From: [Phormidium] sp. LEGE 05292
Lineage (GTDB): Bacteria > Cyanobacteriota > Cyanobacteriia > Cyanobacteriales > Aerosakkonemataceae
Reading direction: 5' to 3'
Length of the DNA stretch: 64,000 nucleotides
Assembly: GCF_015207735.1 (NCBI RefSeq)
Contig: NZ_JADEWG010000002.1
Coordinates: 62,001-126,000 of the forward strand
Part shown: piece by piece, positions 7,370 through 59,198 of the stretch
Numbering within the stretch: position 1 is the stretch's first letter
How the letters are laid out: each line of letters begins with the position of its first letter
Notes under the pieces: model-generated
What the model saw: only the letters and a program-made list of their open reading frames with translations
Databases searched by the model: none
Told to the model about the DNA's origin: nothing
Made by a program: the position numbers and the translations under genes

Positions 7370-7395
7370 AGTTGGAAACTCCAGCACAGTAGTTA

Positions 7396-7875: not shown

Positions 7876-7965
7876 TTTTTACTTTAAGTTTAGATTAGCA
7901 TTTTTTATTTATGTAATTAACCATTTATCTACATATTTGATGACCCTTTTAATTTTTATCTTTAA

Positions 7966-10309: not shown

Positions 10310-10438
10310 CAGTACCTCCAGAGGTAATTTTTTCTATTCTAAAGAATGAATTGAGGGAGGAATATGACTGAGTTTTTGCTGGTGATATGAACGGTCTTCC
10401 AATCAATGTCAGATCAATTCCTTAGCTGCGGACATAGC

Positions 10439-16494: not shown

Positions 16495-16839
16495 GGAATA
16501 AGCATTTGAGACTATATCTAAAGAAATTGCCATAAGCGCGATCGCTACCTTTGGGCTTAGATACTTTAGCCGAAACGTCGATTCTATCGTAAGTTTTCGG
16601 TCTACTGACAATTCTCACTACTCGTCCTGGGCTGGTGCGCCGTAGGCGCACCCCATAAACATTAATGTTGATGAGAACGGGAATTTTTTATAATGCCGCC
16701 TAAGTAGTTTAGGTAACAATCGGGATTACTTATAACACATAACCTTGCTTTTTGTCAAGTCCCACATTCTGGGATTAAGGTTAAAGGAACTAGCATATAA
16801 TTGAGCTATTAACTTATCAATAAGCTGATAGTGTATCTT
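16495..16839. other. intergenic region with one hairpin
   Basis: No gene seen. It holds a short perfect hairpin (listed separately) and AT-rich sequence before the STAND gene. Confidence 0.5.
16634..16652. terminator. GGTGCGCC hairpin
   Basis: GGTGCGCC and GGCGCACC form a perfect 8-bp stem with a GTA loop. No U-tract follows, so it may be a dispersed cyanobacterial hairpin rather than a classical terminator. The arms resemble those of the palindrome at 5.2 and 13.05 kb. Confidence 0.4.
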
Positions 16840-18315: not shown

Positions 18316-18332
18316 ATAAAGCCAGATAATTT

Positions 18333-21490: not shown

Positions 21491-21862
21491 ATGAAAAAAC
21501 TGGCTTTAGTTTTAATCTCTAGCGTGGCTACAGTAAATAGTCTCCACATTACACCTGCACTTGCAAGCCAAGATGTAATTACTTCCTCGTTCGCAACCGA
21601 AAGGTCATCCTTGGAGGTTCCACATAACTATATTGCTCAAGCTAGAAAAGCTTTTACCGTCACATACTTATGGGGTGGGAGAGATATCAACATCAAAAGT
21701 GCTGCAACAGGAAAAGTGTATAACGTACAATACGCAAGTTCCATTGGTGCGGAAGTTGGAGATACAGTCACTGTAATCATTGATGATAGCGAGCGGTGGA
21801 TTACTATCATCAACGAGCGGACAGGCAGCTCTGCTGCAATAACTGGTGTAACGAGAAGGTAG
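21491..21862 (+). CDS. small secreted protein
   Basis: 123-aa protein with a clear Sec signal peptide: MKKLALVLISSVATV followed by a hydrophobic stretch and the cleavage-like site PALAS at about 25. The mature part is a small beta-rich domain (KAFTVTYLWGGRDINIKSA). The ATG used here has GAGG eight bases upstream; a longer frame from further upstream is less likely. It opens the long plus-strand array and would act in the periplasm or outside the cell. Family unknown. Confidence 0.65.
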   Translation: MKKLALVLISSVATVNSLHITPALASQDVITSSFATERSSLEVPHNYIAQARKAFTVTYLWGGRDINIKSAATGKVYNVQYASSIGAEVGDTVTVIIDDSERWITIINERTGSSAAITGVTRR

Positions 21863-21937
21863 CTTAGGTAGCAGATTCCTGTGAACTAATTTTTTACCAG
21901 CAATTGCAATTAGATTAACAGATTAGGAAAGTTGCCC

Positions 21938-22852
21938 ATGAAATATGAAATTTTGCAAAACCAAACGGCATCCAATAAAAATGGAAAAAACCTGCGTGTA
22001 CTCCAACCGAGTTGGACGCTAGGCGAAATCACATTACCTGCTAGCACCTTGGAACAAATTGAGGAGATGGTTGCCTATATTCGTTATCGAGAAAAGTTGC
22101 TAAATGAATGGTGCTTTGCTCGATTTTTGAAAAATAGCGGTGGCTTGATTGTCAACTTTTATGGACTACCAGGTACAGGTAAAAGCATTACTACTGAAGC
22201 CCTAGCTAACCTACTTCAGATGTCTATAATCAAAGTCAACTACGGAGAACTTCAATCAGAACTAATGGGAGGTACATCTTCCAACCTTAATAGCCTTTTT
22301 CAAGAAGCAGAAGAAACAAATAGTATGCTGATATTTGATGAGGCAGATGCCCTTGTGAGTCCGCGAATTTCTCGCCTCTCTCAAGCAGCAGATCATGACA
22401 TTAATGCAGTCAAGAGTACCCTGCTTACATTGCTAGACAGGACTCGAAATGTAGTAGTTTTTACGACTAATTTTTTTGGCCAATACGACCCATCTGTACT
22501 TAGAAGAATTCTCTTCAATATCGAGTTTTTACCACCGGATAATTCAATGCGAAAAAAACTCTGGGAATTCCATTTATCCACTAATATACCCAAAAGCATT
22601 AGCTATGAACGTTTAGCAGAAATCAGTGATGGCTTGTGTGGTGGCGATATTCGCAATCTTACTCTCAAGCTTGGATTAAAATTACTATTAGGTAAGGCTA
22701 GTGAGTTGAATGAAATGATTGTTCAGTCAGAAATAGATCGCTACTTAACAACTAAAAATCGTCATCAAGAACTAAACAACACCATAGCTGTAAACTCCCA
22801 GCTTACCGACGAAAAGAATGTGAAATTAAATCAAACCCAAATAGAGGAATAA
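21938..22852 (+). CDS. AAA+ ATPase
   Basis: 304-aa single-domain AAA+ protein, of the unfoldase/remodelling kind (FtsH/26S/ClpA-like core). Walker A GLPGTGKS is at 76-83, Walker B LIFDEADA at 131-138, a sensor 1 Asn lies in VVVFTTNFF, and an Arg finger region in SVLRRILFNIEF. The C-terminal small helical domain contains GDIRNLTLKLG. There is no protease or membrane segment. The ATG follows AGGAAAG at good spacing. It may remodel products of neighbouring genes such as the GTPases; that is contextual inference. Confidence 0.85.
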   Translation: MKYEILQNQTASNKNGKNLRVLQPSWTLGEITLPASTLEQIEEMVAYIRYREKLLNEWCFARFLKNSGGLIVNFYGLPGTGKSITTEALANLLQMSIIKVNYGELQSELMGGTSSNLNSLFQEAEETNSMLIFDEADALVSPRISRLSQAADHDINAVKSTLLTLLDRTRNVVVFTTNFFGQYDPSVLRRILFNIEFLPPDNSMRKKLWEFHLSTNIPKSISYERLAEISDGLCGGDIRNLTLKLGLKLLLGKASELNEMIVQSEIDRYLTTKNRHQELNNTIAVNSQLTDEKNVKLNQTQIEE

Positions 22853-22855
22853 ATC

Positions 22856-23197
22856 ATGCCTATCGACATTATTTTGTGGGCTGTTGCTGCTGGAATAGCA
22901 GGTTTTGCTGTGGGTTATTTCTGGGATGAAATAAAAGCATGGGCGACCCAAGCTGTCCGGGCTATTTTAAATGGAATCAATTGGGCAGTCGAGGTAACAT
23001 CCGATGCCCTCACGTATCTAGTAAGGCAGGGTACCCGTATCTATAAAAAGGTGGAAGTTTATGTCAAAAATGTAGCCAGTGGGGGTATTAGACGAGAATA
23101 TCGACAGGAGTTGATCTCAGAAACCGAAATCCCTGGTGATATTCTGTCCCAACTCAATGCTAAGGGTCAACTTCTAATGATGCGGACTTCTACTTAA
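22856..23197 (+). CDS. small membrane-associated protein
   Basis: 113-aa protein with one N-terminal membrane segment (IILWAVAAGIAGFAVGYFW) and an amphipathic helical middle. It starts three bases after the AAA+ gene, so translation is probably coupled. The C-terminal motif EIPGDILSQLNAKGQ resembles the NIPPDIAQELKQKG end of the next gene, hinting at a shared fold or peptide interaction. Function unknown. Confidence 0.7.
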   Translation: MPIDIILWAVAAGIAGFAVGYFWDEIKAWATQAVRAILNGINWAVEVTSDALTYLVRQGTRIYKKVEVYVKNVASGGIRREYRQELISETEIPGDILSQLNAKGQLLMMRTST

Positions 23198-23295
23198 CCA
23201 TTTTCTTGGGGTGGGGTAAATATAGCTCGCTCCACTCCAAATCTCTTTAAAACGTTATCAAAAATCCGACAACTACTGTTTAGAGGTTAATAATC

Positions 23296-23703
23296 ATGAG
23301 CCATGAAGAAACGCTAGGGCAAAGCTTTGGCAAATTTTTCAATAGTGTTAACCAGGCTGTTAAAAAAGTTTCTGAAGCATTTCAAGAGGAAATGGCTGCC
23401 TCCAACTCTCTGTTATGTATCAAAGAAGGAGTATTAGATTTTCATTACATCGAATCAGATATAGCTGGATTACACAAACAATTAAAGCGCGATGGACATG
23501 AGGTGCTAGGCAGCCATGTTCTTCTAAACGATCGAACTAACTCGCTGGTGATTAAAGTGTATACCCGTCAAGGTAAGGAAAACTTTGTTAACACAGTTAC
23601 AACTCCAGTCAAACTTGCTGTCAATATTCCGCCTGACATCGCTCAAGAATTAAAGCAGAAAGGCCACGTTGAGTTGAATGTAAAGCCTGATGTCGATTTT
23701 TAG
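23296..23703 (+). CDS. hypothetical protein with helical N-terminus
   Basis: 135-aa soluble protein. Residues 1-40 form an amphipathic helix (FGKFFNSVNQAVKKVSEAFQ); the rest alternates beta strands. Its end (NIPPDIAQELKQKGHVELNV) parallels the end of the preceding small membrane protein. This may be a recent duplication of one module, here without the membrane anchor. Same strand and close spacing place it in the array. Family unknown. Confidence 0.65.
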   Translation: MSHEETLGQSFGKFFNSVNQAVKKVSEAFQEEMAASNSLLCIKEGVLDFHYIESDIAGLHKQLKRDGHEVLGSHVLLNDRTNSLVIKVYTRQGKENFVNTVTTPVKLAVNIPPDIAQELKQKGHVELNVKPDVDF

Positions 23704-23856
23704 GGGCTTTCGCGTACTTGTGGTGAAAATCCCGGTTCTTTGGGCATGAGGGAGAGAAATGTTTACCCAACAAACATTTAAGCCATATATAAGTCTGCCT
23801 TATCACTATTTATCTGGGAGAGCCTGTTTGGGCCTGAGTGCATAAACTATAGACGA

Positions 23857-25593
23857 TTGAAGGTGAGGCCAGTTATAAACGATTCATGGTATCTCAACCA
23901 ACTGAACTTTATGGACGAGGATTTTGGTACTGACAATTCTGGCAACTTGCTACCTGACGGTATTAGTGAGGACGTGAGAGCGCATGGGCCAAATCATGCT
24001 CAAGACTACGTTGGCTCCCCACCACTTACTTTCATTGAACCTACTAACCTAGCCTCAATACTTAATGAGCCAAAGATTGATTTATTACCAGAGCAACACG
24101 AGCATCCACTTCAAGAAAATAATCAACATGAACTGGCGCGATCGCTTGAATACCAACCTTTAGCCTATTCAAAGGAGAGTTCTACCATACCTGAACCGCT
24201 TCAATTCAATTCTGACCCGAAATTTGACTCTGAGGAAAAGGGAAACTCTACTACAAACCCTGAACTGTGTCAGTTTCACTACGACGATAGGGAAGAATAC
24301 CTTTCTACAAAACCTGGGTTGTGTCAACTAGATAGCGATACAATAACGAGGAGCGAGGAGTATGACTGTGGTTATCCTGAGCAAACGGATGATACTGATA
24401 ATTATCTAGGACGAGAAAGTGCAGATAGTGGGTATACATACGGGAGCCACTTTGCTCAATCTTCATACAGTTGGGAAAATCAAGTCAACAATTTCTATGG
24501 CGATAATTCAAGCTTATCTGACTTATATACCAACTGGAGTTACGATCGCTCTGAAACTGATGACCAAATTCAACCCGAAAATCAGCCAGATGAGGAATTA
24601 AATCACCAAAGTGAGTATATTCTTGGTGATTCTACAAATCAACCTAACTATCTAGTTCACCAGAACTTCGATCCGGAACACCAAGACGGGTTTGTAATTG
24701 GCGATCCCAAGCATGAAATGCCTTATTGGGAACACCAAAGTTATTCCCATGACTGCGGAATTAAGGTTCAGCAATTTGTTTTAGAGAGCTTAACAGGAAA
24801 GCATTTTTCAGAAAATAGTCTTTGCCTAGAAGCTATGATTGATGGCTATTATGTCCCCGGAGTAGGAACTCCTATTGAATACATCGATCATTTACTGGAA
24901 GCTAAAGGTATTCCTATAGAGCATCATTTCAATGGTAACTTCAAGGAGTTGACTGACAAATTGAATCACCACGAATATGTGATTGTTAGTGTTGATTCCA
25001 ATGTACTTGCTGCACCAGATCAAGGTTCACTTCTAGGAAATCTCGTTCAAGATTATCGAGGAATACCAGGGCAAAAAGCTAATCATGCAGTAGAGGTTAT
25101 TGGCGTAAATTTTACTTCAGATCCTTTCCACCCAAAAGTTATTTTAAATGATCCTGGAGTTATTAATGGTAGGGGTGTAGAGATTCCATTAGAGCAGTTT
25201 GAAAAAGCCTGGGCTGCAAGCGACCATTTTATGGCATCTACCAAATTACATCATGATAATGATTTTATTGCCTCTACCGATAGCCAGCACCATCAAGAGC
25301 ATAATTTTGCACTAGGTTCATCTTCAGATGTGTTGATAAATGACTACGGTGAAGTATATATGCACGGTGGGCAAGTAGGCTCGGTTCACGACAGAAAATT
25401 TTATAACTTTATGGGTGTTTATTTAGGTCGATTAGATGATGATGGCTATATATATGACGCTCATGAAAAAAAAGTAGGCTGGACAGATAATATCAGCGCA
25501 CATGATATGAATAATACTCTCCTTTTTAGTTCAGGTAGCCGTCTGAAAAATGCTTCTTGGTTTTTATTTGAAAGATTAGGAGGAGTCAGCTAA
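23857..25593 (+). CDS. C39-like papain-fold peptidase with C-terminal beta-flower-like repeats
   Basis: 578-aa protein. Residues 1-280 are acidic, Asn/Gln-rich and likely disordered. Residues about 280-470 form a peptidase C39-like domain: Cys300 in SHDCGIKVQQFVL, His410 in KANHAVEVIGV and Asp432 in VILNDPG. The C-terminal 100 residues carry Gly/Asp-rich short repeats (GVYLGRLDDDGYIYDAHEKK) like the 4-fold beta flower family. There is no signal peptide, unlike ABC-linked C39 domains that sit on transporters. The longest frame starts at TTG; GTG two codons later and an ATG at codon 19 are alternatives, and none has a good ribosome site. A close paralogue follows the Hsp70-TPR gene. Confidence 0.75.
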   Translation: MKVRPVINDSWYLNQLNFMDEDFGTDNSGNLLPDGISEDVRAHGPNHAQDYVGSPPLTFIEPTNLASILNEPKIDLLPEQHEHPLQENNQHELARSLEYQPLAYSKESSTIPEPLQFNSDPKFDSEEKGNSTTNPELCQFHYDDREEYLSTKPGLCQLDSDTITRSEEYDCGYPEQTDDTDNYLGRESADSGYTYGSHFAQSSYSWENQVNNFYGDNSSLSDLYTNWSYDRSETDDQIQPENQPDEELNHQSEYILGDSTNQPNYLVHQNFDPEHQDGFVIGDPKHEMPYWEHQSYSHDCGIKVQQFVLESLTGKHFSENSLCLEAMIDGYYVPGVGTPIEYIDHLLEAKGIPIEHHFNGNFKELTDKLNHHEYVIVSVDSNVLAAPDQGSLLGNLVQDYRGIPGQKANHAVEVIGVNFTSDPFHPKVILNDPGVINGRGVEIPLEQFEKAWAASDHFMASTKLHHDNDFIASTDSQHHQEHNFALGSSSDVLINDYGEVYMHGGQVGSVHDRKFYNFMGVYLGRLDDDGYIYDAHEKKVGWTDNISAHDMNNTLLFSSGSRLKNASWFLFERLGGVS

Positions 25594-25662
25594 TTATTAT
25601 GTCTATCAACTCTTCTTAAGCAGCGCCAAAATCTTTTTTATCAAAAATTTTTGGAGCTATAT

Positions 25663-27183
25663 ATGGCAAACAATAACAACCCAGGCTTTGGTCAATTAAC
25701 TGTTTTATATTCAGGGATTCAGTTAGCTAATAACCTAATCAACACTGTTTTTCGGCGTGGGGAAAGAAAGACTGAATTTCAAAGGCAGACAGAATTACAA
25801 GAACAGGCACACAATTATCGACTAGACGAGCAATCAGTAGCTAGTAAGCATCGCATCCGAGAAATTTCTTATGCCAAGAAGCTTGAGGCAAAAGCCCAAA
25901 AAAAGGGACACCAACATCGGTTAGTAGAGCAAGAAAAAGCGCATGAGTATCGCAAAGTAGAACAGAATGAGGCTCATCAGCAGCGATTGGTAGAAATTGG
26001 CTATCGGGCTGACAGAGAGGAAAGCATACAGGCGATCGCCCATCATTACCGCATCGAAGAAAGGGGAGTCGATCATATCTATCGACTGCGAGAAGCTGAA
26101 TTTTCTAGCGAACTACAACTGTATTTAGGCTTGAAGTTTCGGGAGATTGACTATCAACACTCTACAGAATTAGAGCAACTTCGTAATCAAAATGCGGTTC
26201 GGACAGCTGCCATTAACCGCAAGTTGCAAAGACTAGAGGAAAATAGCCCTTTTCTAGACCCTGTTGAGTACGTTGTTGAAACTTTAACCGAGATTTATGA
26301 GCGAAATCGTCAACCTTTAGTTCTGATTGCTCCTTTTTGGGACAATACCCGCACTCATAACGCTAATGATGCAGGAGGATTTCCTGATTTTCGATTAGCA
26401 ATAAGTGTGGCGTGGCAAAAAACTCAGTGGTTTGATGGTGTAACTAGATGTGACGGTTACATATCGCGCCCTCTATTGCGGGGAGATCGGGATATTCACT
26501 TTATTAGTGCTGCTCTTGCCAATCTTCCTATCATCTTAATTCATGGTGCAGTTCAAGGTGGATACAGAGTGCATCCGGCGATCGCGTTCTGGAATCTACT
26601 TCCCGGACAAGGTGAAACCTACTCTGAGTTAAATCTAGACTCTTTTGACGTGCGATCGCCCAAACCTGGCTCGAATAACAAGCTAGAGTTTGAAGACTTC
26701 GTAGCTCATTATTTGGCATCAGTGGTAGGCATTTTAAGCGATGCACACCACCTAGTTTTAGAAGGTAAACGCCCTGATTTGCGGCGATACCTCTCCGACG
26801 AACCTGAGAAACTACAGCTATCTGCCCATCAGTTTTGTCTTTACTATGACCTACTTTGTTACCGTGAACCCGATCGAGAACACTTTTATCGTCTCGATCA
26901 AGCTTTGATGTTACATGAATGCAATCTTGGCAAAGAAGCAAGAGAGCAAATAGCAGAAGCGTTAATAAGTTGGCATTATCAAAAGTCTCAAAAACATGAT
27001 TTACCCGATCTTGCCTTACTGTTCAAGTTGTCTCACCAGGGGGATTTGTCATTTATGACTAAACTAGCCGAAACTTACCAAATTATTGGTGAGCAAGACC
27101 AAGCTGCCCAAATCAATCAATTGGTTGACGACTTAAAAATACCGAAGTTTGAGCCAATCGATTGGTTTGTCTACGAAAAATAA
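25663..27183 (+). CDS. unknown protein with Glu/Arg/His-rich coiled coil and globular C-terminus
   Basis: 506-aa protein of no family I can name. Residues about 35-200 are a highly charged coiled coil with repeated HxYR-x-E words (HNYRLDEQ, HEYRKVEQ, HHYRIEER, HIYRLREAE). Residues about 210-500 are globular with hydrophobic strands such as RQPLVLIAPFWDN and ALANLPIILIHGAV. The ATG is preceded by GGAG at six bases, preferred over an upstream TTG. It sits between a C39-like peptidase and a GTPase in the array, suggesting a scaffold or a substrate-recognition component. Confidence 0.7.
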   Translation: MANNNNPGFGQLTVLYSGIQLANNLINTVFRRGERKTEFQRQTELQEQAHNYRLDEQSVASKHRIREISYAKKLEAKAQKKGHQHRLVEQEKAHEYRKVEQNEAHQQRLVEIGYRADREESIQAIAHHYRIEERGVDHIYRLREAEFSSELQLYLGLKFREIDYQHSTELEQLRNQNAVRTAAINRKLQRLEENSPFLDPVEYVVETLTEIYERNRQPLVLIAPFWDNTRTHNANDAGGFPDFRLAISVAWQKTQWFDGVTRCDGYISRPLLRGDRDIHFISAALANLPIILIHGAVQGGYRVHPAIAFWNLLPGQGETYSELNLDSFDVRSPKPGSNNKLEFEDFVAHYLASVVGILSDAHHLVLEGKRPDLRRYLSDEPEKLQLSAHQFCLYYDLLCYREPDREHFYRLDQALMLHECNLGKEAREQIAEALISWHYQKSQKHDLPDLALLFKLSHQGDLSFMTKLAETYQIIGEQDQAAQINQLVDDLKIPKFEPIDWFVYEK

Positions 27184-27216
27184 GCAACTTTATGAAATAA
27201 AAAGGAGAAATTTATC

Positions 27217-29022
27217 ATGTCTAAAAATGCCTTAGAAAGCTTAAAGTTTCTTTTTCAAGACCGTCCTGATGTTACAAGGCTACTTGATATACGCGAGTTA
27301 GACTTAAGCGATAGGGAAGATGATGCATTTATTGAGCAGCAAGGAAAACAAGAGTTATTTCCGAAACCAGTAAATTTATACGCAACCGGAAGAACAGGTG
27401 CGGGAAAAACTACATTAGGAAGACGCATATTAGATCCCAAACAAACAATAGATACAAAGCAAGCAGTTATGGGTTCTACAGGCAAAACTGATTGTACTTG
27501 GATGGTGCAATTTTTCCAAATGCTCAGTAATTTGCGCTACTATGACTTACCTGGAGCAGGAGGATGCAATGACACTTATGAAAATATTAATAGAGCCGCT
27601 TTGCTGATTCGTCAAGTTGATGATGATGATTTACAACCTGTTGATAAGTTTGAAGTTTGGGATTGTTCTGATTATCCAAAAACCAAGCAAGTGAAGAAAA
27701 GAATTGCAACAGTACAACAATGGCAGTCACAAGAAAACCAAGAGTATGTTGCACCAGATATTATCCTCTATGTAGTAGCTCCACACACCCAATTTACTCG
27801 TGAAGATCAACGTTATTTGAAGGCATTACTCAAGTTTCAAAAGGAGCGTGGCAGCAAAAATAAAGTTATCTTTGCTCTAAATATTCATCATCAGGACAGA
27901 ACAAAGATTACAACCCAAGAAAATATTGATGATGCCCGTGAAAAAATAATAAATATTTATCAAAGTTTTTACTCAGATCAACCTCCAATTGTCGAAGTTG
28001 ATTGTTTGAGAGGAACTGGCATCAACAAAATTACTGAATTAATGTGCAAAATATTGCCTGACAATAAGATCGGTAATATGGGACAGGCACTACAAGACGA
28101 ACTAAAGGCAATTGCCAAAAAAGAACGCAGCCGTCGTTATCGGCAAGCATTAATTTACATTGCTAGTCGTCTAGCGACTTACAAAGTAGACGAAAAGCTT
28201 GGACAACAAGGAATACTGGAAGAAGCATATGCAGCTATTTGTGATTATGCTATTAGAATTTTTAGAGAAGAAGATGCTCGTGCTGCGGCGGAAAGAGAAC
28301 TTTATGAAATGGTTGACAGCTTTGCTACTGAAGCCAAGCTATCGCGAGAGGAAGCTATCAAAATTTTAGTTCCAGATGTCGTTGAAGAAGATGTTACCCA
28401 ACCAGAGATAGTAGGGTATACACCTAAGTACAAGACTGTAGATATCGAAGAAGAAGTACCAGATTATCGTGAAGTTACAGAGAAGGTGAAGCGTTCTGCC
28501 ATTGCACGGGCTGGACTTGGGGTAGTAGAAGGAGTTGCTCGGACAATTACATCTCCAATTAGTGGAATTCAGAAGTTATTTGGAGTGGAAAAAACTATTG
28601 GTGACAAGATTCATAAAGAAATCGACAGAGATGCTTATAGAAATGAAAATGTCATTAAGGCGGCAACAAGAAAAATTAAAAAGACAGAAGAGCGCATGAT
28701 CGGTATGGAAGCGGTAAGACAGGACGTTACTAGGAAAGTGCAAAAGGTTGTGCAGAAGGAAAAAGAGGTTGGCAAGAACTATCTTCAAGGCGGCTACCCC
28801 GTAGTTGAAAATCTGCTAGCGATTGGTCTAGGCATAGAGAATGCCGACCCTGCATGGGACTTACAGAATGATTTTGAATCTATAGTCGAAGCAGAACGAG
28901 AACAAGTAAAAGCGATGCTTACCAACCAAAAGGATGAAATCAATAAATTGGCAGTGAATAGCGACCCAAGACAGGCTGAAGTAAGAATTATTTGGATTCT
29001 AGAGCAGGCTTTGATGAACTAA
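27217..29022 (+). CDS. P-loop GTPase A of the GRTGAGKTTL family
   Basis: 601-aa GTPase. G1 is GRTGAGKTT at 58-66 and G3 is DLPG at 110-113. The G4 position is unusual: VIFALNIHHQD instead of a plain NKxD. The GTPase domain fills about 50-280. The C-terminal half is helical, with a short Gly/Ala-rich stretch (AIARAGLGVVEGVARTI) near 430 that may insert into or lie on a membrane, then charged helices. The overall style recalls AIG1/IRG- or dynamin-related GTPases. GGAG lies nine bases before the ATG. A paralogue follows directly. Confidence 0.8.
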   Translation: MSKNALESLKFLFQDRPDVTRLLDIRELDLSDREDDAFIEQQGKQELFPKPVNLYATGRTGAGKTTLGRRILDPKQTIDTKQAVMGSTGKTDCTWMVQFFQMLSNLRYYDLPGAGGCNDTYENINRAALLIRQVDDDDLQPVDKFEVWDCSDYPKTKQVKKRIATVQQWQSQENQEYVAPDIILYVVAPHTQFTREDQRYLKALLKFQKERGSKNKVIFALNIHHQDRTKITTQENIDDAREKIINIYQSFYSDQPPIVEVDCLRGTGINKITELMCKILPDNKIGNMGQALQDELKAIAKKERSRRYRQALIYIASRLATYKVDEKLGQQGILEEAYAAICDYAIRIFREEDARAAAERELYEMVDSFATEAKLSREEAIKILVPDVVEEDVTQPEIVGYTPKYKTVDIEEEVPDYREVTEKVKRSAIARAGLGVVEGVARTITSPISGIQKLFGVEKTIGDKIHKEIDRDAYRNENVIKAATRKIKKTEERMIGMEAVRQDVTRKVQKVVQKEKEVGKNYLQGGYPVVENLLAIGLGIENADPAWDLQNDFESIVEAEREQVKAMLTNQKDEINKLAVNSDPRQAEVRIIWILEQALMN

Positions 29023-29127
29023 GTAATAGGACTTAAATAACTTGAGCATTTGTTTGAGTCCAAATCAATATTTGGCACAGTAAATCGCTCAAGTTATTTC
29101 ATACCCATTTTTAATCAAGAATTGACT

Positions 29128-31479: not shown

Positions 31480-31504
31480 CATTAGAAAACTTTAGGAATG
31501 AACT

Positions 31505-34500: not shown

Positions 34501-34525
34501 CCGAGAAGGATTAGGGCTAGGATAA
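31505..34525 (+). CDS. Hsp70-type ATPase domain fused to TPR repeats
   Basis: 1006-aa protein. Residues 1-355 are an Hsp70 nucleotide-binding domain: IDFGTSNSS at 5-13, DLGGGTFDVAL at 171-181 and LLVGGSCQIPYVR at 310-322. The usual Hsp70 substrate-binding domain is absent. Instead, residues about 363-1000 are some eighteen TPR units. The fusion probably uses the TPR array to bind partners and the ATPase to cycle. A GrpE-like gene downstream is the expected exchange factor, and a J-domain gene lies at 8-9.5 kb. The next gene starts two bases after its stop. Three TPR pairs are near-identical at DNA level with a 204-base period. Confidence 0.9.
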   Translation: MWLGIDFGTSNSSAIFMQGWVPSLVEIPGREQVYSLPTCVYVKKETEIYVGYEAYNQRLRDASRYKELFKRDLGRTKPYYIGDCELLPEDLVVKVIAKLKALAESQFNVKLTRVTLAVPASHPEHKRQLMVEAGKKAGFSQVALVDEPVAAAIYYAQRSSTKDGEILLVYDLGGGTFDVALIQRRGSGYKSLTLPLGDPQCGGMDFDRKIFEDFKARCNLEQRELLERQDTQALRTRFTLNDYCRSLKENLSTKQEDSFTIPLFGEEQEYRLTRTAFELMITPYLEKTLQLCRQLVRNAGLTEEQVDKILLVGGSCQIPYVRQVMEREFQRPVLRFDDPDLAVCKGAGLYEGWNPAYESLQAGIDRADVGDYHGAIEKYNEALQINSNYARAYVERSRAHLELGNHDQVIEDVERAIQLEPKYADAYGGYADLYFRLGEDERAIAQFQRTIEINPNDIGAYCELGRCYSALGEKEKALDSWHQALKITPQSAGDFSNRGSIYHWLEEEQSALEQYNKAIELNHRSVDAYVGRALVYAKLKNHQAVTDDFNEALRLNPNCTHAFGWRGIYFYEELGDFERAIAEFNLALDLNPNYIAIYSHRGLCHTLMGNAEQAITDFKQILQTNPNDSSAYSGLGNVYSAIENYQEATDNFNKALQINPKNSVAYSGLGDIASNQDKPEQAITNYKKAIELEPKLVSAYLGLGKVYLVLGNYQEAIDNFNKAIQINPKNPVAYSELGDIFYDQENLEQAIANYKQAIEIEPEFVAAYLGLGQVYLVLGNYQEAIDNFNQSIQINPKNPVAYFNLGTAFHSQDNLEQAIANYRQAIELEPEYTRVYNQLGVALQQQGELDEAILAYREAVMLVPDYARANSNLGYALLQQEETEEGIEFLEIARELFRTAENHKEADEIDAFLQKRIAETYYQRGEEFFEQDKFAEAIAAYQEAIRIDSSYVDAYFKMGIASFKQGKRSQASIALRKARDLFREQGNEELANEINNFLRREGLGLG
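33433..34044. repeat. 204-bp tandem intragenic repeats in the TPR region
   Basis: The word AAATTATCAAGAAGC recurs at 33433, 33637 and 33841, with long near-identical stretches after each copy. The period of 204 bases equals 68 codons, or two TPR units. This indicates recent unequal duplication within the gene. Confidence 0.75.
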
Positions 34526-34527
34526 CT

Positions 34528-35811
34528 ATGAGCAATAATTATTTGTTTAACGATCTGTTTGGCAATCTATTAGATAGTCAAAATTTCATAGATAGTCAAA
34601 ATTTCACAAGCCAAGAACAATACCATCATTGTGATACTAATACGGATAGCGGTAACTCACAAAAGCATGAATCTGATTATACTCATTCAGAGTTCACCCC
34701 TGATGGGAATAACTATCACCTAGATGGACACCAAGATCTAAATTACTACGTAAATGATTGGCACTCTTATCCATCAGAGTTTGACCCTCATCACTCACGG
34801 ATTCTTGGGAACACAGTAAACCAAACAAACGACTGGAATAATCAGCATTTTGATCCCCATCATCACAGTAATGCGATCGTTGGCGATCCTGCTCATGAGA
34901 TGCAATACTGGCATCACCAAATTCATTCAGAAGACTGTGCTATTGCTACTCAAGAGTTCGTTTTAGAAAGTCTAACAGGTCAGCATTTTTCAGAAAATAA
35001 ATTATGTTTAGAAGCAATGAATCAAGGCTGGTACATACCTGGTATTGGTACTCCAGCCGACCATGTAGGCGATCTGATTGCAAAGCAGGGTTTTCCTGTA
35101 GCGCATGAATATGGATGCACTATAGAACACTTGGCTGAAAAATTAGATAACCATGAAAAAGTAATCGTGGCTGTTAATGAGAGTATACTTCTAACTTCAA
35201 ATCAATCTCTCAATAATTATCTTGGCATCCCAGGTCAGGAAGCTAACCATGCTGTTCAAGTAATTGGAATTGATAATTCTCACCTCGATCGTCCAATGGT
35301 CATTCTTAACGATCCAGGTGTAGCAGATGGTAAAGGAATGATGGTGCCATTAACCCAATTTGAAAAAGCATGGGCTGCAAGCGATCACATGATAGTATCT
35401 ACTTATATAACTAATAACTATGAGCTTCATCATTCTGTTAATTTCGCTACACTCCAAGCTCACGAGCAGAATGCTCTTTCTTTAAACAGCGATCGCTTGA
35501 TATTAGGGTCATCAGACTGTCTTTCTGTACATATATGGAACGATGGCGATGTTTGGCTGTATCGAAATGGAAACCATGTGAGCAATCTCGGTCACATTAA
35601 TGGACGAACAATCTATAACTCGGCTGGACACGAAGCTGGTTATGCTGGAACAGATGGCAAAGTTTATGACAGAAATGACAAATGTGTAGGACGAGTAGAT
35701 GCCTGCGGTCATGTTTACAATACGGCAAGTGAAGAAGTTTATACCACTAACAATGGTGTAGTTGGAGGTGCTGCTTATCTTCTTTTGGTGTATTTGGGTG
35801 GAATGAAGTAA
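34528..35811 (+). CDS. second C39-like peptidase with beta-flower-like repeats
   Basis: 427-aa paralogue of the peptidase at 23.9 kb. The shared core is obvious: GDPAHEMQYWHHQ, then Cys137 in SEDCAIATQEFVLESLTG, His241 in EANHAVQVIGID and Asp near 261 in VILNDPG. The N-terminal disordered region is shorter (about 115 residues). The C-terminal Gly/Asp repeats (GYAGTDGKVYDRNDKCVGRV) match the 4-fold beta flower type. The start lies two bases after the Hsp70-TPR stop, so the two are almost certainly co-translated. That makes the peptidase a likely client or partner of the chaperone. Confidence 0.8.
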   Translation: MSNNYLFNDLFGNLLDSQNFIDSQNFTSQEQYHHCDTNTDSGNSQKHESDYTHSEFTPDGNNYHLDGHQDLNYYVNDWHSYPSEFDPHHSRILGNTVNQTNDWNNQHFDPHHHSNAIVGDPAHEMQYWHHQIHSEDCAIATQEFVLESLTGQHFSENKLCLEAMNQGWYIPGIGTPADHVGDLIAKQGFPVAHEYGCTIEHLAEKLDNHEKVIVAVNESILLTSNQSLNNYLGIPGQEANHAVQVIGIDNSHLDRPMVILNDPGVADGKGMMVPLTQFEKAWAASDHMIVSTYITNNYELHHSVNFATLQAHEQNALSLNSDRLILGSSDCLSVHIWNDGDVWLYRNGNHVSNLGHINGRTIYNSAGHEAGYAGTDGKVYDRNDKCVGRVDACGHVYNTASEEVYTTNNGVVGGAAYLLLVYLGGMK

Positions 35812-35848
35812 TTATTCAAAAATTGGAGCATTAAACAAGTTAGAAACA

Positions 35849-36382
35849 ATGGAAAGAACTAGAAAAATAGAAAGATTAATCGAGGACATTCGTAAAACTC
35901 CTATCTTTCGTCAACTTATCCCAATGGAGGCGCAGATTGGTTGGCCTATCCCTTTACGTCGAGAAAGCAAAGTCTATGTCACTTTAGTATTCTTTGGTGC
36001 AAATAGTCGAAGTAAAGGTGAAACAGTCCTTTTTCCGCCCTTTGCCAAAATTACTCTAGATTGGTCTAACCAGATTCCTGTTGAATATGTTAATTTACGC
36101 TTCCAAAATCCTTGGAAAGAAGGTAATTGGGAAGCTGAGGTTGGCATTTTTCCTCATTCAGCAATAGCTCAAATAACTGTAGCAGAATATCAGAAAAAAC
36201 GACAAGAATTACTAGCAATGTATGACGAAATGCTGGATAAGCTAGCACAGGGTGGGTCATTTCTCCCCGACTGGAAAACACGCTTTAAGGAATTGTTACG
36301 GCTTTTAATGGAACCTCCATTAGAACCATACTATCGCGCTATTGACGCGAAGTTTTTTGACCATTTTTTACCTCATTATTAA
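35849..36382 (+). CDS. hypothetical protein, 177 aa
   Basis: Soluble protein with a beta-rich first part (ESKVYVTLVFFGANSR) and a helical C-terminus. No known motif. It lies between the second peptidase and the dynamin-like genes with short gaps on both sides, so it belongs to the array. Possibly an adaptor. Confidence 0.65.
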   Translation: MERTRKIERLIEDIRKTPIFRQLIPMEAQIGWPIPLRRESKVYVTLVFFGANSRSKGETVLFPPFAKITLDWSNQIPVEYVNLRFQNPWKEGNWEAEVGIFPHSAIAQITVAEYQKKRQELLAMYDEMLDKLAQGGSFLPDWKTRFKELLRLLMEPPLEPYYRAIDAKFFDHFLPHY

Positions 36383-36397
36383 TTAGAAGAGGAATCA

Positions 36398-38410
36398 ATG
36401 TTTAATTCTCATGAATGGTATCAACAAAAGAAGCAAGAAACATTAACTTTGGTTCAGTCAGCAATTACTTTATCTCAAAACCAAGGCAATCAAAAATTTG
36501 ACCGACGACTACAGGACGCACGAAAACGTTTGATTGAAGGGAAATTATTAGTAGTTGTATGTGGTGAGTTTAAGGAAGGGAAATCAAGTTTACTCAATGC
36601 TCTACTTAATGAAATTAATGACGATCTATTCCCTGTAGATTCAGACATTGCTACAGGCATTGTAACTACTATCAGTTATGGAGAACAAGAAAAAATTACA
36701 GTAATTTTAGGAGAACCAGGCAAAGAAGAGCAAATACAAATTCAGAGGCATCAAATTGATGAATATGTTAACGAGCAACGCAATAAGGGAAAACAAGCTC
36801 GAATGCTAACAATTCAAGCTCCAAACTCTCAACTTAAAGAGGGTTTAGTTTTGGTTGATACACCTGGTGTAGGAGGATTAAACACACAACATACTGGAAT
36901 TACATACGGTTTCATTCCTGAAGCTGATGTGATTCTATTTGTTAGTGATGTCAAAGCTCCACTATCAACAGACGAACTAAAATTTTTGAAGTTTATCACA
37001 GAGCGTTGTCCTGATATTATTCCTAACATTATCTTCGTCGCTACCAAAATAGATGCTAATGCTAATTATGAAGAGATTGTAGAGAATAATCGGGAGAAAC
37101 TGTCCCAAGTGCTGAAGCGTTCGGGTAAAGAAATTACCATTATTCCTGTCTCCAGTCATATCAAATTAGAGTATTTAAGATCTAAACATCTAGAAGATTT
37201 AGAGGATAGTAATTTCCAAGCACTAGAGAACGAACTTTGGCAACTGCTTAATCAGCGTGGCGGCTACACCTTACTAATGCGATCGTTTGGGGAACTTGGT
37301 TCAGTTTTAAAGGAAATGAGAATTCCCCTACAAGCACAACTATCAGCGTGTCAGCAGCAGAGCGAACTGGAGGTGAAAAAACTGGAACAGCAGTTCCAAA
37401 AAGAGCGAGAACGCCTAGCCGAACTGGAAACTAACAATGCCAACTGGCAAAGGCAGTTAAACAGAGGTCTTGAAGATATCAGTGTAGAAATATCCAATCA
37501 ATTTCAGAGAGGGTTTGCTAAGATTGGCACTTGGGCTAATGGATACATAGCAGATGAGAAATTGTTAGTAAACCCGGCAGAAATAGCTGCGCTAATTGAG
37601 CGAGATATTGATACATTAATGTCTGCGTTAGGTCGTCAATTGAGTCAAGCAGCATCTAAGTTACATTTTAAGATTGAGGCAACAAGCGGTTTAAATTTAA
37701 ATTTTGTCGATTCTGAATATTTGGATTGGGAAAAAACTCAACTTTCAACTGAAAATATCCAAATTAAGCAAGCAGGATGGTGGGAAAAAAGTCTGAATGC
37801 CACCCGCTCTGCTATGTTTAACGCCTCTGCTGGTTCTGTTGTTGGTGGCGGATTCGGGGCAGCAATTGGAGGTTTTCTTGGTAGTCTGCTAGGAGGTATT
37901 GGTGCTATCCCTGGAGCGGTAATTGGTGGCAAAATTGGGGCAGCAATTGGTGGAGTAGCTGGTAGTGCATCAGGTGTTAGACAAGGATTGTCTCAACTTA
38001 GAGAGCGAGACTTCGCCTCAGTTAGGAATAAAGTGACACCAATGATTAATCAGTTTATTAGTGAAAGTAGACAGCTTTGTAACCAGAGTTTGACAGATGC
38101 TATCAGAAGTTTAAAACGGTCAATGGAGGATGAGTTAAGCGAACAAATTCGACAACTCAAACAAACTTGCGATCGCACTATCCGGTCGATTCAAGATACC
38201 CATAGGCTAACCGAACAACAAAAAGCTGAAAAAATTAAGGCTCTTACGATCCCTCTCCAGACCCTAGAGCAAATCCACAAAAGCGTTGCGACTCTAGCTA
38301 GTGCTGTAATTAAACAAAAAGAGATGGCAGAACAGCATCAAGTTGCTGTTGCAACTCAATCAAATAAGACAGATGACGCTGATTATGGTGAGGATTGGGC
38401 AGATGGATGA
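36398..38410 (+). CDS. dynamin-family GTPase with glycine-zipper membrane segment
   Basis: 670-aa bacterial dynamin-like GTPase. G1 is GEFKEGKSS at 56-64, G3 is DTPG at 154-157, and G4 is TKID at 216-219. A coiled coil spans about 320-390. A Gly/Ala zipper (GGGFGAAIGGFLGSLLGG and following) near 475-525 is a probable membrane-insertion element. The C-terminal helices would complete the stalk. Such proteins remodel or fuse membranes using GTP. The next dynamin-like gene overlaps its end by eight bases, and paired dynamins of this sort often act as hetero-oligomers. Confidence 0.88.
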   Translation: MFNSHEWYQQKKQETLTLVQSAITLSQNQGNQKFDRRLQDARKRLIEGKLLVVVCGEFKEGKSSLLNALLNEINDDLFPVDSDIATGIVTTISYGEQEKITVILGEPGKEEQIQIQRHQIDEYVNEQRNKGKQARMLTIQAPNSQLKEGLVLVDTPGVGGLNTQHTGITYGFIPEADVILFVSDVKAPLSTDELKFLKFITERCPDIIPNIIFVATKIDANANYEEIVENNREKLSQVLKRSGKEITIIPVSSHIKLEYLRSKHLEDLEDSNFQALENELWQLLNQRGGYTLLMRSFGELGSVLKEMRIPLQAQLSACQQQSELEVKKLEQQFQKERERLAELETNNANWQRQLNRGLEDISVEISNQFQRGFAKIGTWANGYIADEKLLVNPAEIAALIERDIDTLMSALGRQLSQAASKLHFKIEATSGLNLNFVDSEYLDWEKTQLSTENIQIKQAGWWEKSLNATRSAMFNASAGSVVGGGFGAAIGGFLGSLLGGIGAIPGAVIGGKIGAAIGGVAGSASGVRQGLSQLRERDFASVRNKVTPMINQFISESRQLCNQSLTDAIRSLKRSMEDELSEQIRQLKQTCDRTIRSIQDTHRLTEQQKAEKIKALTIPLQTLEQIHKSVATLASAVIKQKEMAEQHQVAVATQSNKTDDADYGEDWADG

Positions 38411-39962
38411 AACAACATTACAACAGCAGGTGGAAAACCTCTTTGATTTTTGGTGCGGCTCAATTCAGAATCGTCCTAACCTAGCGAACTTATATCAGAC
38501 TCTGAAACAGTGTCAGCAGCGACTGCGGCAACCAATGCGAGTGGCGATCGTCGGCAAGATCAAGGCTGGTAAATCCACGATGATGAATGGATTGCTAGGA
38601 GAAAAAGTTGTTCCCACTGGTTCAGTAGAAGCGACTTTTAATGTTAACTGGTTCAAGTATGGCGAACAAAAATCCCTACTGGTAAATTACAAAGATGGTA
38701 AGAACCCAGAATCAAAATCTTTTGATGAATTAGAACGTTTGACTTTACGAGCTAAGGAAAACTACGATTACTTATTGGGTATTAAATATATTGAGGTATT
38801 GTACCCAAACCATATCTTAAAAGAGCTAAATCTGATTGATACACCTGGGTTAGCATCCTATTATCAAGATGACTCAGAAAATACCCGCGAATTCCTAAAC
38901 TTACACGGTCAAGAACTTACTCAAGTAACTCAATCTGAAGCCTCTAATGCAGACGCAGTGTTGTTTTTATTTGATAAAAGTATTTCTGAGTCAGTTAGGG
39001 AAACGATGGCTCAATTTCAGGGCGCTGCCGCAGGACAAGCAACACCCATCAATGCTATTGGTGTACTAACCAAAGTTGATGATTACTGGTCAGATAAAGA
39101 TCAACCTATTAAAAAAGGTTTAGAAATTGCCGATCGGTTGCAACGCGACCACTCAGAACTAAGGAACTTGTTGTATACAATTCGCCCTATCTGCGGTTTG
39201 TTAGCTTTTGGCGCACAAACTTTAACAACAGAGGAATTTAAAACCTTGACCCAACTAGCTTACTTGTCTGAAGAACGTTCTGAGAGATTAATCAAGGATG
39301 CAAGACGATTTAGCCAGCGTGATTACCCAGATGAACCAGATATTCCCCCAGCTTCTGAGAGAAAATTGGTGTTACATCGATTGGGACAATATGGAGTATG
39401 GTTAGCTTGCACTATTATTCGTTCTGGAGTTAGTGATGCCAAACTACTTGCTAGGCAACTATTACAAAGTAGTGGAATTCCAGAACTATACGATTTGATA
39501 GTTTCTCACTTTGGTAATCGGGCTTTTTTAATCAAGCTAAATACTGGATTACAACAGATCAAAGCAGCTTGTTTCTTAGAATGTCAAAGATTGGAAGGTG
39601 TAGATTGCCAACTAGCCGCCCAGATAGCAGGACAATTTGGCAGGCTAGAAGACGATGAGCATTCTTTACAAGAACTAAGAGTTCTACGGAATTATTACGA
39701 GGCAAAACTTAATTTCAGTGATGCTGACGTAGAACAATTATTGGCAGTAACTGGTGAGAATGGAACCTCATTAGAATCCCGCTTAGGGCTGGCTGAAAAT
39801 ACTGCTGTATCAGAGATGATTTCTACCGCTGCTAGAAGGGTGCAAGAATGGAATCAACGAACAAACGATTATTTAGGTGCTGATGGTCAAACTATTGATG
39901 CCGCTAGAGTTTTAGCTCATTCTTACGAAAGAATACTTTATTCACTCAAACACAACAAATAG
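38403..39962 (+). CDS. second dynamin-family GTPase
   Basis: 519-aa GTPase. G1 is GKIKAGKST at 51-59, G3 DTPG at 146-149 and G4 TKVD at 223-226. The C-terminal part is helical and lacks the glycine zipper of its partner. I start it at the ATG that overlaps the previous stop, because GGTGAGG lies nine bases upstream; a TTG start further up is unlikely. Overlap and family suggest obligate partnership with the preceding dynamin. Confidence 0.85.
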   Translation: MDETTLQQQVENLFDFWCGSIQNRPNLANLYQTLKQCQQRLRQPMRVAIVGKIKAGKSTMMNGLLGEKVVPTGSVEATFNVNWFKYGEQKSLLVNYKDGKNPESKSFDELERLTLRAKENYDYLLGIKYIEVLYPNHILKELNLIDTPGLASYYQDDSENTREFLNLHGQELTQVTQSEASNADAVLFLFDKSISESVRETMAQFQGAAAGQATPINAIGVLTKVDDYWSDKDQPIKKGLEIADRLQRDHSELRNLLYTIRPICGLLAFGAQTLTTEEFKTLTQLAYLSEERSERLIKDARRFSQRDYPDEPDIPPASERKLVLHRLGQYGVWLACTIIRSGVSDAKLLARQLLQSSGIPELYDLIVSHFGNRAFLIKLNTGLQQIKAACFLECQRLEGVDCQLAAQIAGQFGRLEDDEHSLQELRVLRNYYEAKLNFSDADVEQLLAVTGENGTSLESRLGLAENTAVSEMISTAARRVQEWNQRTNDYLGADGQTIDAARVLAHSYERILYSLKHNK

Positions 39963-39967
39963 GTCTT

Positions 39968-40603
39968 ATGGATAGTTATTTTGCGCTTTTTGAAACCTTT
40001 TCCCCTTGGATATTACTGATTTTAGGGACAATTTTTTGGTTACTCCATAACCAAAAGCTCCAAAAACAACGGCTAGAGGAACTCGATTTAGCATGTAGAG
40101 TAGAGGCGATCGCCCGAAAGTTGAGCGAGCTATCGCCAGAAGCTCCCGAGCAATCCCAGAATGAGATAGTCACGTCCCTAAGATCTACTTACTCATTCTT
40201 AGAACGGTTGTCAGAAAAAGAAGTCATATCTGAAAATTTTCAAAAAAAGGTAATACCTGAAAACTATTCCGAACCATCAGAGAAACCTTTACAACTATCT
40301 GGTACAGCCAAAGAATTAATTAAAGTTCGAGATTGGGTATTACTTGCAAAAACTGGGAGTGAATCTATAAAGCCTGAAATGTTCGATTCTTTATATCGTC
40401 AGTTAGGGCAAGTCTTAGAAAAAGAAGGAGTAACTTCTTTAGAAGAAACTGGTACATACAATGTTGAACGGCAACAAATAGTTGGTACACAGCCTACTAA
40501 CGATCCATCGCTAGACGAGCAGATTTGTGAAACCATCAGACCTGGGTATCTGTTTCAAGGCCGCTTAATTCGATCGCAGGAAGTTGTTATCTATACAACA
40601 TAA
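39968..40603 (+). CDS. membrane-anchored GrpE-like nucleotide-exchange factor
   Basis: 211-aa protein. One N-terminal membrane segment (WILLILGTIFWLL, about 14-26) is followed by a coiled coil and linker. The last 60 residues resemble the GrpE beta head: EETGTYNVERQQIVGTQPTN, then DPSLDEQICETIRPGYLFQG, then RLIRSQEVVIY. GrpE proteins release ADP from Hsp70. The likely partner is the Hsp70-TPR fusion eight kilobases upstream in the same array, placing that chaperone at a membrane. The family call rests on the C-terminal motif and is moderately strong. The gene follows the second dynamin gene by five bases. Confidence 0.7.
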   Translation: MDSYFALFETFSPWILLILGTIFWLLHNQKLQKQRLEELDLACRVEAIARKLSELSPEAPEQSQNEIVTSLRSTYSFLERLSEKEVISENFQKKVIPENYSEPSEKPLQLSGTAKELIKVRDWVLLAKTGSESIKPEMFDSLYRQLGQVLEKEGVTSLEETGTYNVERQQIVGTQPTNDPSLDEQICETIRPGYLFQGRLIRSQEVVIYTT

Positions 40604-59093: not shown

Positions 59094-59198
59094 TTAATTG
59101 CAAGGGAGAAGGATTTTTTAGTTTTCCTACTCTCCCTATCCTTAAATTTTTCATCCCCTAACGGGGAGTTACTCAGCACTTTGAATAAAACTCGAATA

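What the first reader, a model, noticed from the sequence alone, without database searches (positions are those of the whole stretch)
21491..40603. Fourteen-gene chaperone-GTPase-peptidase array of unknown function
Sequence shows a same-strand run: secreted protein, AAA+ ATPase, two small proteins, C39-like peptidase, coiled-coil protein, two GRTGAGKTTL GTPases, Hsp70-TPR fusion, second C39-like peptidase, unknown, two dynamin-like GTPases and a membrane-anchored GrpE-like protein, with many overlaps or gaps under 40 bases. I know of no described system with this combination. Inference: a membrane-associated machine in which a dedicated Hsp70/GrpE pair controls GTPases and self-contained peptidases, possibly for defence or membrane repair.
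Basis: partly seen in the sequence, partly recalled or inferred. Interest (0 to 1): 0.9.

Follow-up and report, generated by a model that had tools for sequence, protein, structure and literature searches.

The report
Hsp70-dynamin-peptidase membrane cassette
Six of the fourteen genes form a real, often plasmid-borne gene set shared by cyanobacteria and, in reduced form, by soil actinobacteria, in which a chaperone-type ATP switch travels with a pair of membrane-cutting proteins and a protease; the other genes are separate neighbours.

Summary
The 14 genes are real and same-strand, but are three modules plus an extra C39 gene, not one conserved machine. A: divergent regulator, IetA-like AAA+, two small proteins. 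B: coiled-coil protein plus twin GTPases. C (core): Hsp70-TPR (g9), C39 peptidase (g10), unknown g11, IniA-like and IniC-like dynamins (g12, g13), GrpE-like protein (g14). A and B occur elsewhere without C in the stretches read. C recurs: of 310 order genomes the same four hold g11 and the IniC-type dynamin, with order C39-g11-IniA-IniC-GrpE where contigs allow. An Anabaena plasmid has it without a GrpE gene found. All 22 plasmid records with a C39 homologue also hold a dynamin and an Hsp70 within 7.3-12.6 kb. g12 and g13 form clades with actinobacterial IniA and IniC partners. In a sister arrangement g11 is fused to the dynamin that follows C39. Best reading (mechanism inferred): a dedicated Hsp70/GrpE ATPase cycle plus a peptidase step controls an IniA/IniC membrane-fission pair for membrane stress or defence. 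Dynamin-DnaK neighbourhoods are in print; I found no description of this set with C39, g11 and GrpE.

The parts
31505..34525 (+). g9, core: Hsp70 ATPase domain (about 1-350) followed directly by TPRs, no Hsp70 substrate-binding domain matched
   Evidence: Pfam HSP70 3-349 and 16 TPR_1 stretches; ATPase motifs kept; clade with three relatives
34528..35811 (+). g10, core: C39-like cysteine peptidase with C-terminal beta-flower-like domain
   Evidence: 47.5% to an Anabaena C39 peptidase; Gln/Cys/His/Asp invariant in 8 of 8; Bflower_2 4.2e-07, below cut-off
35849..36382 (+). g11, core: conserved protein without Pfam match; homologous to the N-terminal extension of a dynamin in other loci
   Evidence: 56-63% identity to three relatives; fusion homology hhalign probability 93, E 2.7e-07
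36398..38410 (+). g12, core: IniA-type dynamin-like GTPase
   Evidence: PDB 6j72 IniA, E 5.3e-46 over 33-637; one group with actinobacterial IniA-type partners 99/98
38403..39962 (+). g13, core: IniC-type dynamin-like GTPase (TTG 38343 is the ORF-list start; ATG at 38403 is likelier)
   Evidence: Dynamin_N 4.4e-18; one group 100/100 with actinobacterial IniC-type partners; start
39968..40603 (+). g14, core: GrpE-like nucleotide exchange factor with a hydrophobic N-terminal stretch in this copy
   Evidence: Pfam GrpE 8.6e-10; A4 profile matches GrpE 4ani, E 1.8e-04; C-terminal pattern
20018..21274 (-). g0, module A: divergent gene with TPRs; N-terminus shared with genes beside A elsewhere
   Evidence: TPR_MalT 9.2e-08, 32.2 bits against cut-off 45; 25.9% and 25.6% matches next to g3-g4 homologues in G019 and G153
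21491..21862 (+). g1: small protein with hydrophobic N-terminal stretch, no family
   Evidence: No Pfam match; hydropathy; position only
21932..22852 (+). g2, module A: AAA+ ATPase nearest to IetA but far below its cut-off
   Evidence: NF042959 103 bits against 510; 60.6% homologue in G019 next to g3 and g4 homologues
22856..23197 (+). g3, module A: small protein with N-terminal hydrophobic stretch
   Evidence: 46.9% homologues next to g4 homologues in G019 and G153
23296..23703 (+). g4, module A: small protein
   Evidence: 3 of 194 phylum genomes, window included; 40.7% and 37.9% homologues
23857..25593 (+). g5: second C39-like peptidase, paralogue of g10, with a long acidic N-terminus
   Evidence: 45% to g10; all four active-site residues kept
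25651..27183 (+). g6, module B: coiled-coil protein
   Evidence: 54.9% homologue beside g7 and g8 homologues in L039; 34.7% C-terminal match in L034; itself found only in the window among 194 phylum genomes
27217..29022 (+). g7, module B: GTPase of a tandem pair
   Evidence: 4 of 60 relatives have it, window included, each with a second match next to it; 61% in L039
29050..31479 (+). g8, module B: second GTPase with long coiled-coil region
   Evidence: Adjacent to g7 homologue in L034, L035, L037 and L039

Best explanation
g9-g14 are one functional cassette, often carried by plasmids: an ATP-switched membrane-remodelling machine. The dynamin pair g12/g13 (IniA/IniC type) is the membrane-acting part and, by homology to IniA, would bind and cut membranes with GTP. 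The Hsp70 is not a general folding chaperone: it keeps the ATPase, lacks a recognisable peptide-binding domain and carries TPRs here (protein kinase plus WD40, or almost nothing, in relatives), so it acts as an ATP switch or scaffold that assembles or disassembles the dynamins, reset by its own GrpE-like exchange factor. g11 is a dynamin adaptor. The C39 peptidase cuts a partner, most simply g11, a dynamin or an invader protein, to start or end the action. It probably serves membrane stress or defence of the plasmid-bearing cell. Shown: gene content, conserved order, shared ancestry of the pair, intact motifs, the g11 fusion. Inferred: direct interactions, switch role, peptidase target, purpose. 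Modules A, B and g5 are neighbours whose partnership with the core is unsupported.
For: g11 occurs in 4 of 310 order genomes (a fifth, G239, is a weak hit, E 2.0e-04, that turned out to be the fused form) and the IniC profile, at E up to 1e-20, in exactly those 4. Order C39-g11-IniA-IniC-GrpE in G382 and G253, g11 end-IniA-IniC-GrpE on the G270 contig, Hsp70-four genes-C39-g11-IniA-IniC on Anabaena plasmid pANA01. From C39 queries: in a 194-genome sample 4 of 5 genomes with a C39-domain hit, the window among them, have dynamins beside it, and 22 of 22 plasmid records have dynamin and Hsp70 within 7.3-12.6 kb. IniA and IniC groups span two phyla at 99/98 and 100/100. Nonomuraea has IniC-GrpE-IniA-Hsp70 and Nocardia IniA-IniC-DnaK-GrpE-DnaJ. 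Four cyanobacterial cassette Hsp70s form a group apart from six DnaKs, 100/99, with motifs kept. g11 is homologous to a dynamin N-terminal extension. IniA cuts membranes in vitro (PMC6715688, passages).
Against: No expression or interaction data. The set is not constant: no GrpE-like gene was found beside the Anabaena or R. opacus copies, and no C39 by profile in the Nocardia, Nonomuraea or Gordonia stretches (one weak match of a Nocardia ORF to g5, E 0.004). In G253 the Hsp70 lies on the opposite strand. Twelve of the 22 plasmid records are Prescottella equi plasmids, mostly with the same span, so independent cases are few. The phylum search with g14 found five other genomes, all weak and beside a DnaK-type Hsp70, so probably canonical GrpE. 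G005 has C39 but no dynamin in about 9.4 kb on either side. The rows of the IniC profile came from the four genomes it found. The g11 structure model is poor (pLDDT 42.5).
Confidence: 0.5

Rival explanations
1. Anti-phage or abortive defence: infection damage trips the Hsp70/peptidase switch and the dynamins wreck or seal membranes.
For: Sporadic, 4 of 310 genomes; plasmid or mobile-element context in Anabaena and the window; the Anabaena copy embeds a DO-GTPase (Pfam 2.7e-15), a family predicted to act in conflict systems some of which include Hsp70/GrpE (PMC7159879 section 29); PADLOC models LeoA 9.6e-29 on g12 and IetA 2.5e-30 on g2; NB-ARC and TPR genes upstream.
Against: No known defence system is complete here; IetA and LeoA hits reflect broad families, and g2 is not part of the core; no phage data.
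Confidence: 0.3
2. Envelope-stress repair like iniBAC, carried by plasmids for the cell's benefit.
For: Groups with IniA/IniC-type pairs; [quoted passage not shown] smegmatis (PMC5760070 passages).
Against: Peptidase and g11 have no counterpart in the iniBAC passages I saw; patchy distribution argues against housekeeping; g0 similarity to MalT-type regulators is below cut-off.
Confidence: 0.3
3. Plasmid biology: the cassette helps conjugation or membrane handling of the mobile element itself.
For: Plasmid-borne in Anabaena and many Rhodococcus, Gordonia and Prescottella records; 16 of the 22 C39-positive records are typed mobilizable; the window has a coupling-protein gene, an integrase and DUF3854.
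Against: 6 of the 22 records, pANA01 and R. opacus pLPS8 among them, are typed non-mobilizable; the G253 copy sits near the end of a 5.04 Mb contig.
Confidence: 0.12
4. The Hsp70 merely folds unstable dynamins; there is no switch.
For: IniC was unstable on purification (PMC6715688 passage); Nocardia places canonical dnaK-grpE-dnaJ after iniA-iniC.
Against: Window and pANA01 Hsp70s show no peptide-binding domain, which classical folding needs, and a J-domain search found none in the cyanobacterial cassette stretches apart from the window's own distant one.
Confidence: 0.2
5. Chance cluster of unrelated plasmid cargo.
For: True for modules A and B relative to C.
Against: Fails for the core.
Confidence: 0.03

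Closest known systems
Mycobacterial iniBAC (IniA/IniC dynamin pair)
   Same: Adjacent dynamin pair; g12 matches IniA over nearly its length; g12 and g13 group with actinobacterial IniA/IniC-type pairs (no mycobacterial row was in the tree); dnaK-like gene near the M. smegmatis locus (PMC5760070)
   Different: Here with C39 peptidase, g11, an Hsp70 without peptide-binding domain and a GrpE-like protein; IniB was not sought
Chaperone clade of cyanobacterial dynamins (PMC5827413, section 7 read)
   Same: Dynamin with a DnaK-domain gene beside it
   Different: Described as one dynamin clade with DnaK downstream; here Hsp70 is upstream, the dynamins are a pair, with C39, g11 and GrpE. Whether any member is the same locus I could not check (supplement not read)
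DO-GTPase GAP1-N2 systems, Hsp70/GrpE theme (PMC7159879 sections 27 and 29)
   Same: Hsp70 without peptide-binding domain, GrpE, paired GTPases, TPRs; the Anabaena relative carries one DO-GTPase above and one below cut-off
   Different: Window g7/g8 do not match DO-GTPase models at E up to 1; the word dynamin has 0 occurrences in that paper; such systems are described as nearly absent from cyanobacteria
SrfB-type Hsp70-like protein with a dynamin
   Same: Such a pair lies just downstream of the core in G382; the SrfB match is below cut-off, 25.6 against 27.1
   Different: Separate genes, not in the window array
IetAS defence system
   Same: g2 resembles IetA
   Different: Score far below the IetA cut-off and no subtilase seen in the array

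Membership tests
IniA/IniC dynamin pair | Two adjacent dynamin-like genes | tested here: met
IniA/IniC dynamin pair | Common descent with actinobacterial IniA- and IniC-type pairs | tested here: met
   Groups 99/98 and 100/100; IniA structure match 5.3e-46; mycobacterial genes themselves not in the tree
IniA/IniC dynamin pair | IniB gene upstream and induction by wall inhibitors | not tested
   No IniB search; induction needs experiment
Hsp70 (DnaK) | ATPase domain with phosphate and adenosine motifs | tested here: met
Hsp70 (DnaK) | Substrate-binding domain | tested here: not met
   Pfam HSP70 match ends at 349 of 1006 (profile position 370 of 599), TPRs follow
GrpE | Pfam GrpE above cut-off and C-terminal domain pattern | tested here: met
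   39.0 against 25.8
C39 cysteine peptidase | Gln, Cys, His, Asp active-site set | tested here: met
   Invariant in 8 of 8; that these four make the C39 active site is recalled
C39 cysteine peptidase | Direct Pfam C39 match of g5/g10 | tested here: not met
   None at E up to 1; of the homologues scanned the Anabaena one passes, the G382 one has no match at 0.1
DO-GTPase/GAP1 systems | DO-GTPase in the window | tested here: not met
   g7, g8 no DO-GTPase hit at E up to 1
DO-GTPase/GAP1 systems | Hsp70 plus GrpE theme | tested here: met
   g9, g14 against PMC7159879
IetAS | IetA above cut-off | tested here: not met
   103 against 510 bits
IetAS | Subtilase partner IetS | tested here: not met
   No subtilase among the Pfam hits shown for g1-g14 (list for g9 cut at 25 of 62)

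The most novel reading that the evidence does not exclude
A mobile, cross-phylum immune or membrane-guard system in which a repurposed Hsp70 ATPase with its own GrpE gates an IniA/IniC dynamin pair through a dynamin adaptor (g11), and a C39 peptidase fires or ends the response; the mycobacterial ini dynamins would be a reduced, chromosomal relative of it.
Probability: 0.3. Interest if true: 0.85.

Novelty: new variant of a known kind. Interest (0 to 1): 0.7.

Why it matters
Few regulators of bacterial dynamins are known (recalled). A recurrent cassette that couples a dynamin pair to a dedicated Hsp70/GrpE cycle, an adaptor and a peptidase gives a directly testable control circuit for bacterial membrane fission, offers partner candidates for IniA/IniC, and parallels, by analogy only, Hsp70 action on membrane coats in eukaryotes.

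Tried and rejected
Rejected: one fourteen-gene machine (modules A and B occur without C in the fetched stretches). Rejected: IetAS, DO-GTPase and canonical DnaK membership for window proteins. Considered GAP1 for two Anabaena proteins that share an N-terminal motif; Pfam gives nothing at E 0.1, so not claimed. Looked whether dynamins of about 650-875 residues found in six other places (one of them in the window's own genome) are the published chaperone clade: blastp against my reference set found no Hsp70 beside them.

Led nowhere: structure models of g6 (pLDDT 47.7) and g11 (42.5) are too poor for fold searches, so none was run; profiles of g11 and g6 find nothing convincing in PDB (best g11 E 0.061); C39 profile best 0.057; viral contig scans with g7, IniC and g11 found no relative; the single genome-contig scan, with g7, found 1 locus; plasmid search with g7 found none; g9 ATPase domain matched 44 phage records, all under 60% identity and 27-32% in the ten rows shown, not followed. 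The Hsp70 query from Nocardia turned out to be canonical DnaK. Profile or protein searches of g6, g10, g11 and g14 in the 194-genome sample did not find the whole array elsewhere.

Print search for this combination; no title or abstract start in the listings describes the set; seven papers were opened. The library holds open-licence papers only. Papers: PMC7159879 sections 27 and 29 and passages; PMC5827413 section 7 and passages; PMC8195603, PMC6715688, PMC5760070, PMC6104087, PMC4159319 passages only.
Full report
What is there. The window lies on a 183 kb contig of a 7.5 Mb genome. Fourteen + strand genes run from 21491 to 40603, tightly packed from g6 onward. Surroundings look like a mobile element: integrase, DUF3854, a coupling-protein gene, group II intron with reverse transcriptase, DDE transposase, DNA polymerase III subunit homologues. 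I did not prove whether it is a plasmid or an integrated element.

Splitting the array. Searching parts in other genomes gave different distributions. g4 is in 3 of 194 phylum genomes, window included. In G019 the order is g4-g3-g2 homologues with a g0-like gene divergent to them; in G153 g3-g4 with a g0-like gene and no AAA+ homologue. So g0, g2, g3 and g4 form module A. The g7-g8 pair is in 4 of 60 relatives (window, G223, G199, G008) and in one genome of the GTDB collection, UBA11153; g6 goes with it in UBA11153 and, by its C-terminal part at a contig start, in G223: module B. A tblastn of g9 (ATPase domain), g10, g11, g12, g13 and g14 found nothing at E 0.01 in any of the eight stretches round these relatives, L034-L039, L100 and L101. 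g5 is a paralogue of g10 (45%).

The core. A two-row g11 profile found 5 of 310 order genomes: the window, G382, G253, G270 (a contig-end fragment, E 8.3e-19) and a weak G239. G382 has Hsp70-TPR (57.7%), thioredoxin, 2Fe-2S ferredoxin, C39, g11, IniA, IniC, GrpE-like; G253 has C39, g11, IniA, IniC, GrpE-like, with an Hsp70-kinase-WD40 fusion upstream on the other strand; the G270 contig has the g11 end, IniA, IniC, GrpE-like. A profile of IniC found, at E up to 1e-20, exactly G000, G253, G270 and G382 among 310; its rows came from those genomes, so the result says that no further close copies are in the sample. Earlier single-protein searches in a 194-genome phylum sample found g11 only in the window. 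Anabaena sp. 90 plasmid pANA01 has an Hsp70 of little more than the ATPase domain, four further proteins of which two match DO-GTPase models (one above, one below cut-off), C39, g11 (59.7%), IniA (47.5%) and IniC (56%).

Another phylum. With g10 as query, 22 of 72,556 plasmid records match: Anabaena 1, Rhodococcus 9, Prescottella 12. All 22 also have a g12-type dynamin and an Hsp70 in spans of 7.3-12.6 kb (the Anabaena Hsp70 from the annotation). The Prescottella records are one species and mostly show the same span. R. opacus has IniA-IniC-Hsp70-unknown-C39. Gordonia KTR9 has IniA-IniC-Hsp70 with no C39 found. Nonomuraea has IniC-GrpE-IniA-Hsp70, and Nocardia farcinica IniA-IniC-dnaK-grpE-dnaJ, the dnaK being canonical. 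These last two are held as plasmid records, but one is 11.9 Mb and both are probably chromosomes (inference).

Trees. On about 300 residues round the P-loop, of 43 dynamin rows the 8 IniA rows form one group (99/98) and the 9 IniC rows another (100/100), each split into cyanobacterial and actinobacterial halves (ten rows have odd composition and L087_A is long). The four cyanobacterial cassette Hsp70s group at 100/99 apart from six DnaKs; the three actinobacterial ones form a second group with a long Nonomuraea branch; whether the two groups are sisters is open.

The g11 link. In four loci of the same order (G155, G191, G111, G239) a C39 gene sits beside three dynamins, with no Hsp70 ATPase domain found in the stretches (the G155 contig is only 8.3 kb). 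The dynamin directly after C39 has its P-loop only at residue 261-278, and its N-terminal part is homologous to g11: hmmsearch hits 3 of 12 dynamins, all of this position (best 3.5e-08 for 12 sequences), the fourth (G191) only through the alignment, and hhalign gives probability 93, E 2.7e-07; plain tblastn sees it in G239 at 1.4e-04. So the order C39-g11-dynamin holds in both arrangements, once as a fusion. This is the strongest hint that g11 works on the dynamin. From the g10 query in 194 genomes, C39-domain hits occur in G000, G155, G191, G111 and G005; G005 has no dynamin nearby; G157 and G039 match only the beta-flower part.

Motifs. The Hsp70s keep phosphate, connecting Lys-Arg and adenosine motifs. 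C39 active-site residues are invariant in 8 of 8. g12 and g13 keep G1, G3 and G4 patterns. The four GrpE-like proteins share T-x-RPGY...LIR.

Mechanism. Shown by sequence: content, order, common descent, motifs, fusion. From the literature and recalled family knowledge: IniA binds negatively charged lipids and cuts membranes with GTP (PMC6715688 passages); Hsp70 cycles with GrpE (recalled). Inferred: that the Hsp70 acts on the dynamins rather than on general substrates; that TPR, kinase-WD40 or no C-terminal part set its partners; that C39 is the trigger or off-switch. Purpose is open between defence and membrane stress; plasmid function is a third option.

Known or new. DnaK-domain genes beside cyanobacterial dynamins are in print (PMC5827413 section 7), as is a dnaK-like gene beside iniR in M. 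smegmatis (PMC5760070) and Hsp70/GrpE in DO-GTPase systems (PMC7159879). The set Hsp70, C39, g11, IniA, IniC, GrpE was not found in the searches named under Tried and rejected. I therefore call it a new variant of a known kind.

Noticed in passing
L084:5234-11318: In Anabaena sp. 90, four of five consecutive proteins (Hsp70 and those at 6505-7743, 7766-8779, 9879-11318) end in NDWF, DNWF, FNWF or PEWF: a shared C-terminal tag, perhaps a docking or protease signal.
   Followed up: no
L094:14070-19998: Directly downstream of the G382 core lies another dynamin (875 aa) followed by an SrfB/Hsp70-like reading frame (at least 1092 aa, SrfB match below cut-off): a second Hsp70-dynamin pair.
   Followed up: partly
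L096:11296-14286: Hsp70 ATPase domain fused to a protein kinase and WD40 repeats in one 996-residue protein.
   Followed up: no
L094:6427-7312: Thioredoxin and 2Fe-2S ferredoxin genes between Hsp70 and C39 in G382, hinting at redox input.
   Followed up: no
7966-9540: DnaJ-TPR protein about 12 kb upstream on the - strand; could serve g9, but a J-domain tblastn of 20 related loci hit only Nocardia's own dnaJ.
   Followed up: partly
16831-20021: NB-ARC ATPase and TPR protein as two adjacent genes, STAND-like, in a 4 kb block of 32.7% GC against 38-48% elsewhere in the window.
   Followed up: no
51048-53128: ThiF/E1-like protein followed, with 4 bases of overlap, by a 415-residue protein without Pfam match at 0.001.
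   Followed up: no
57657-60587: DNA polymerase III beta and delta'/gamma homologues on the mobile-looking contig.
   Followed up: no
L087:10004-17367: Nocardia farcinica places iniA-iniC directly before dnaK-grpE-dnaJ on the same strand.
   Followed up: partly
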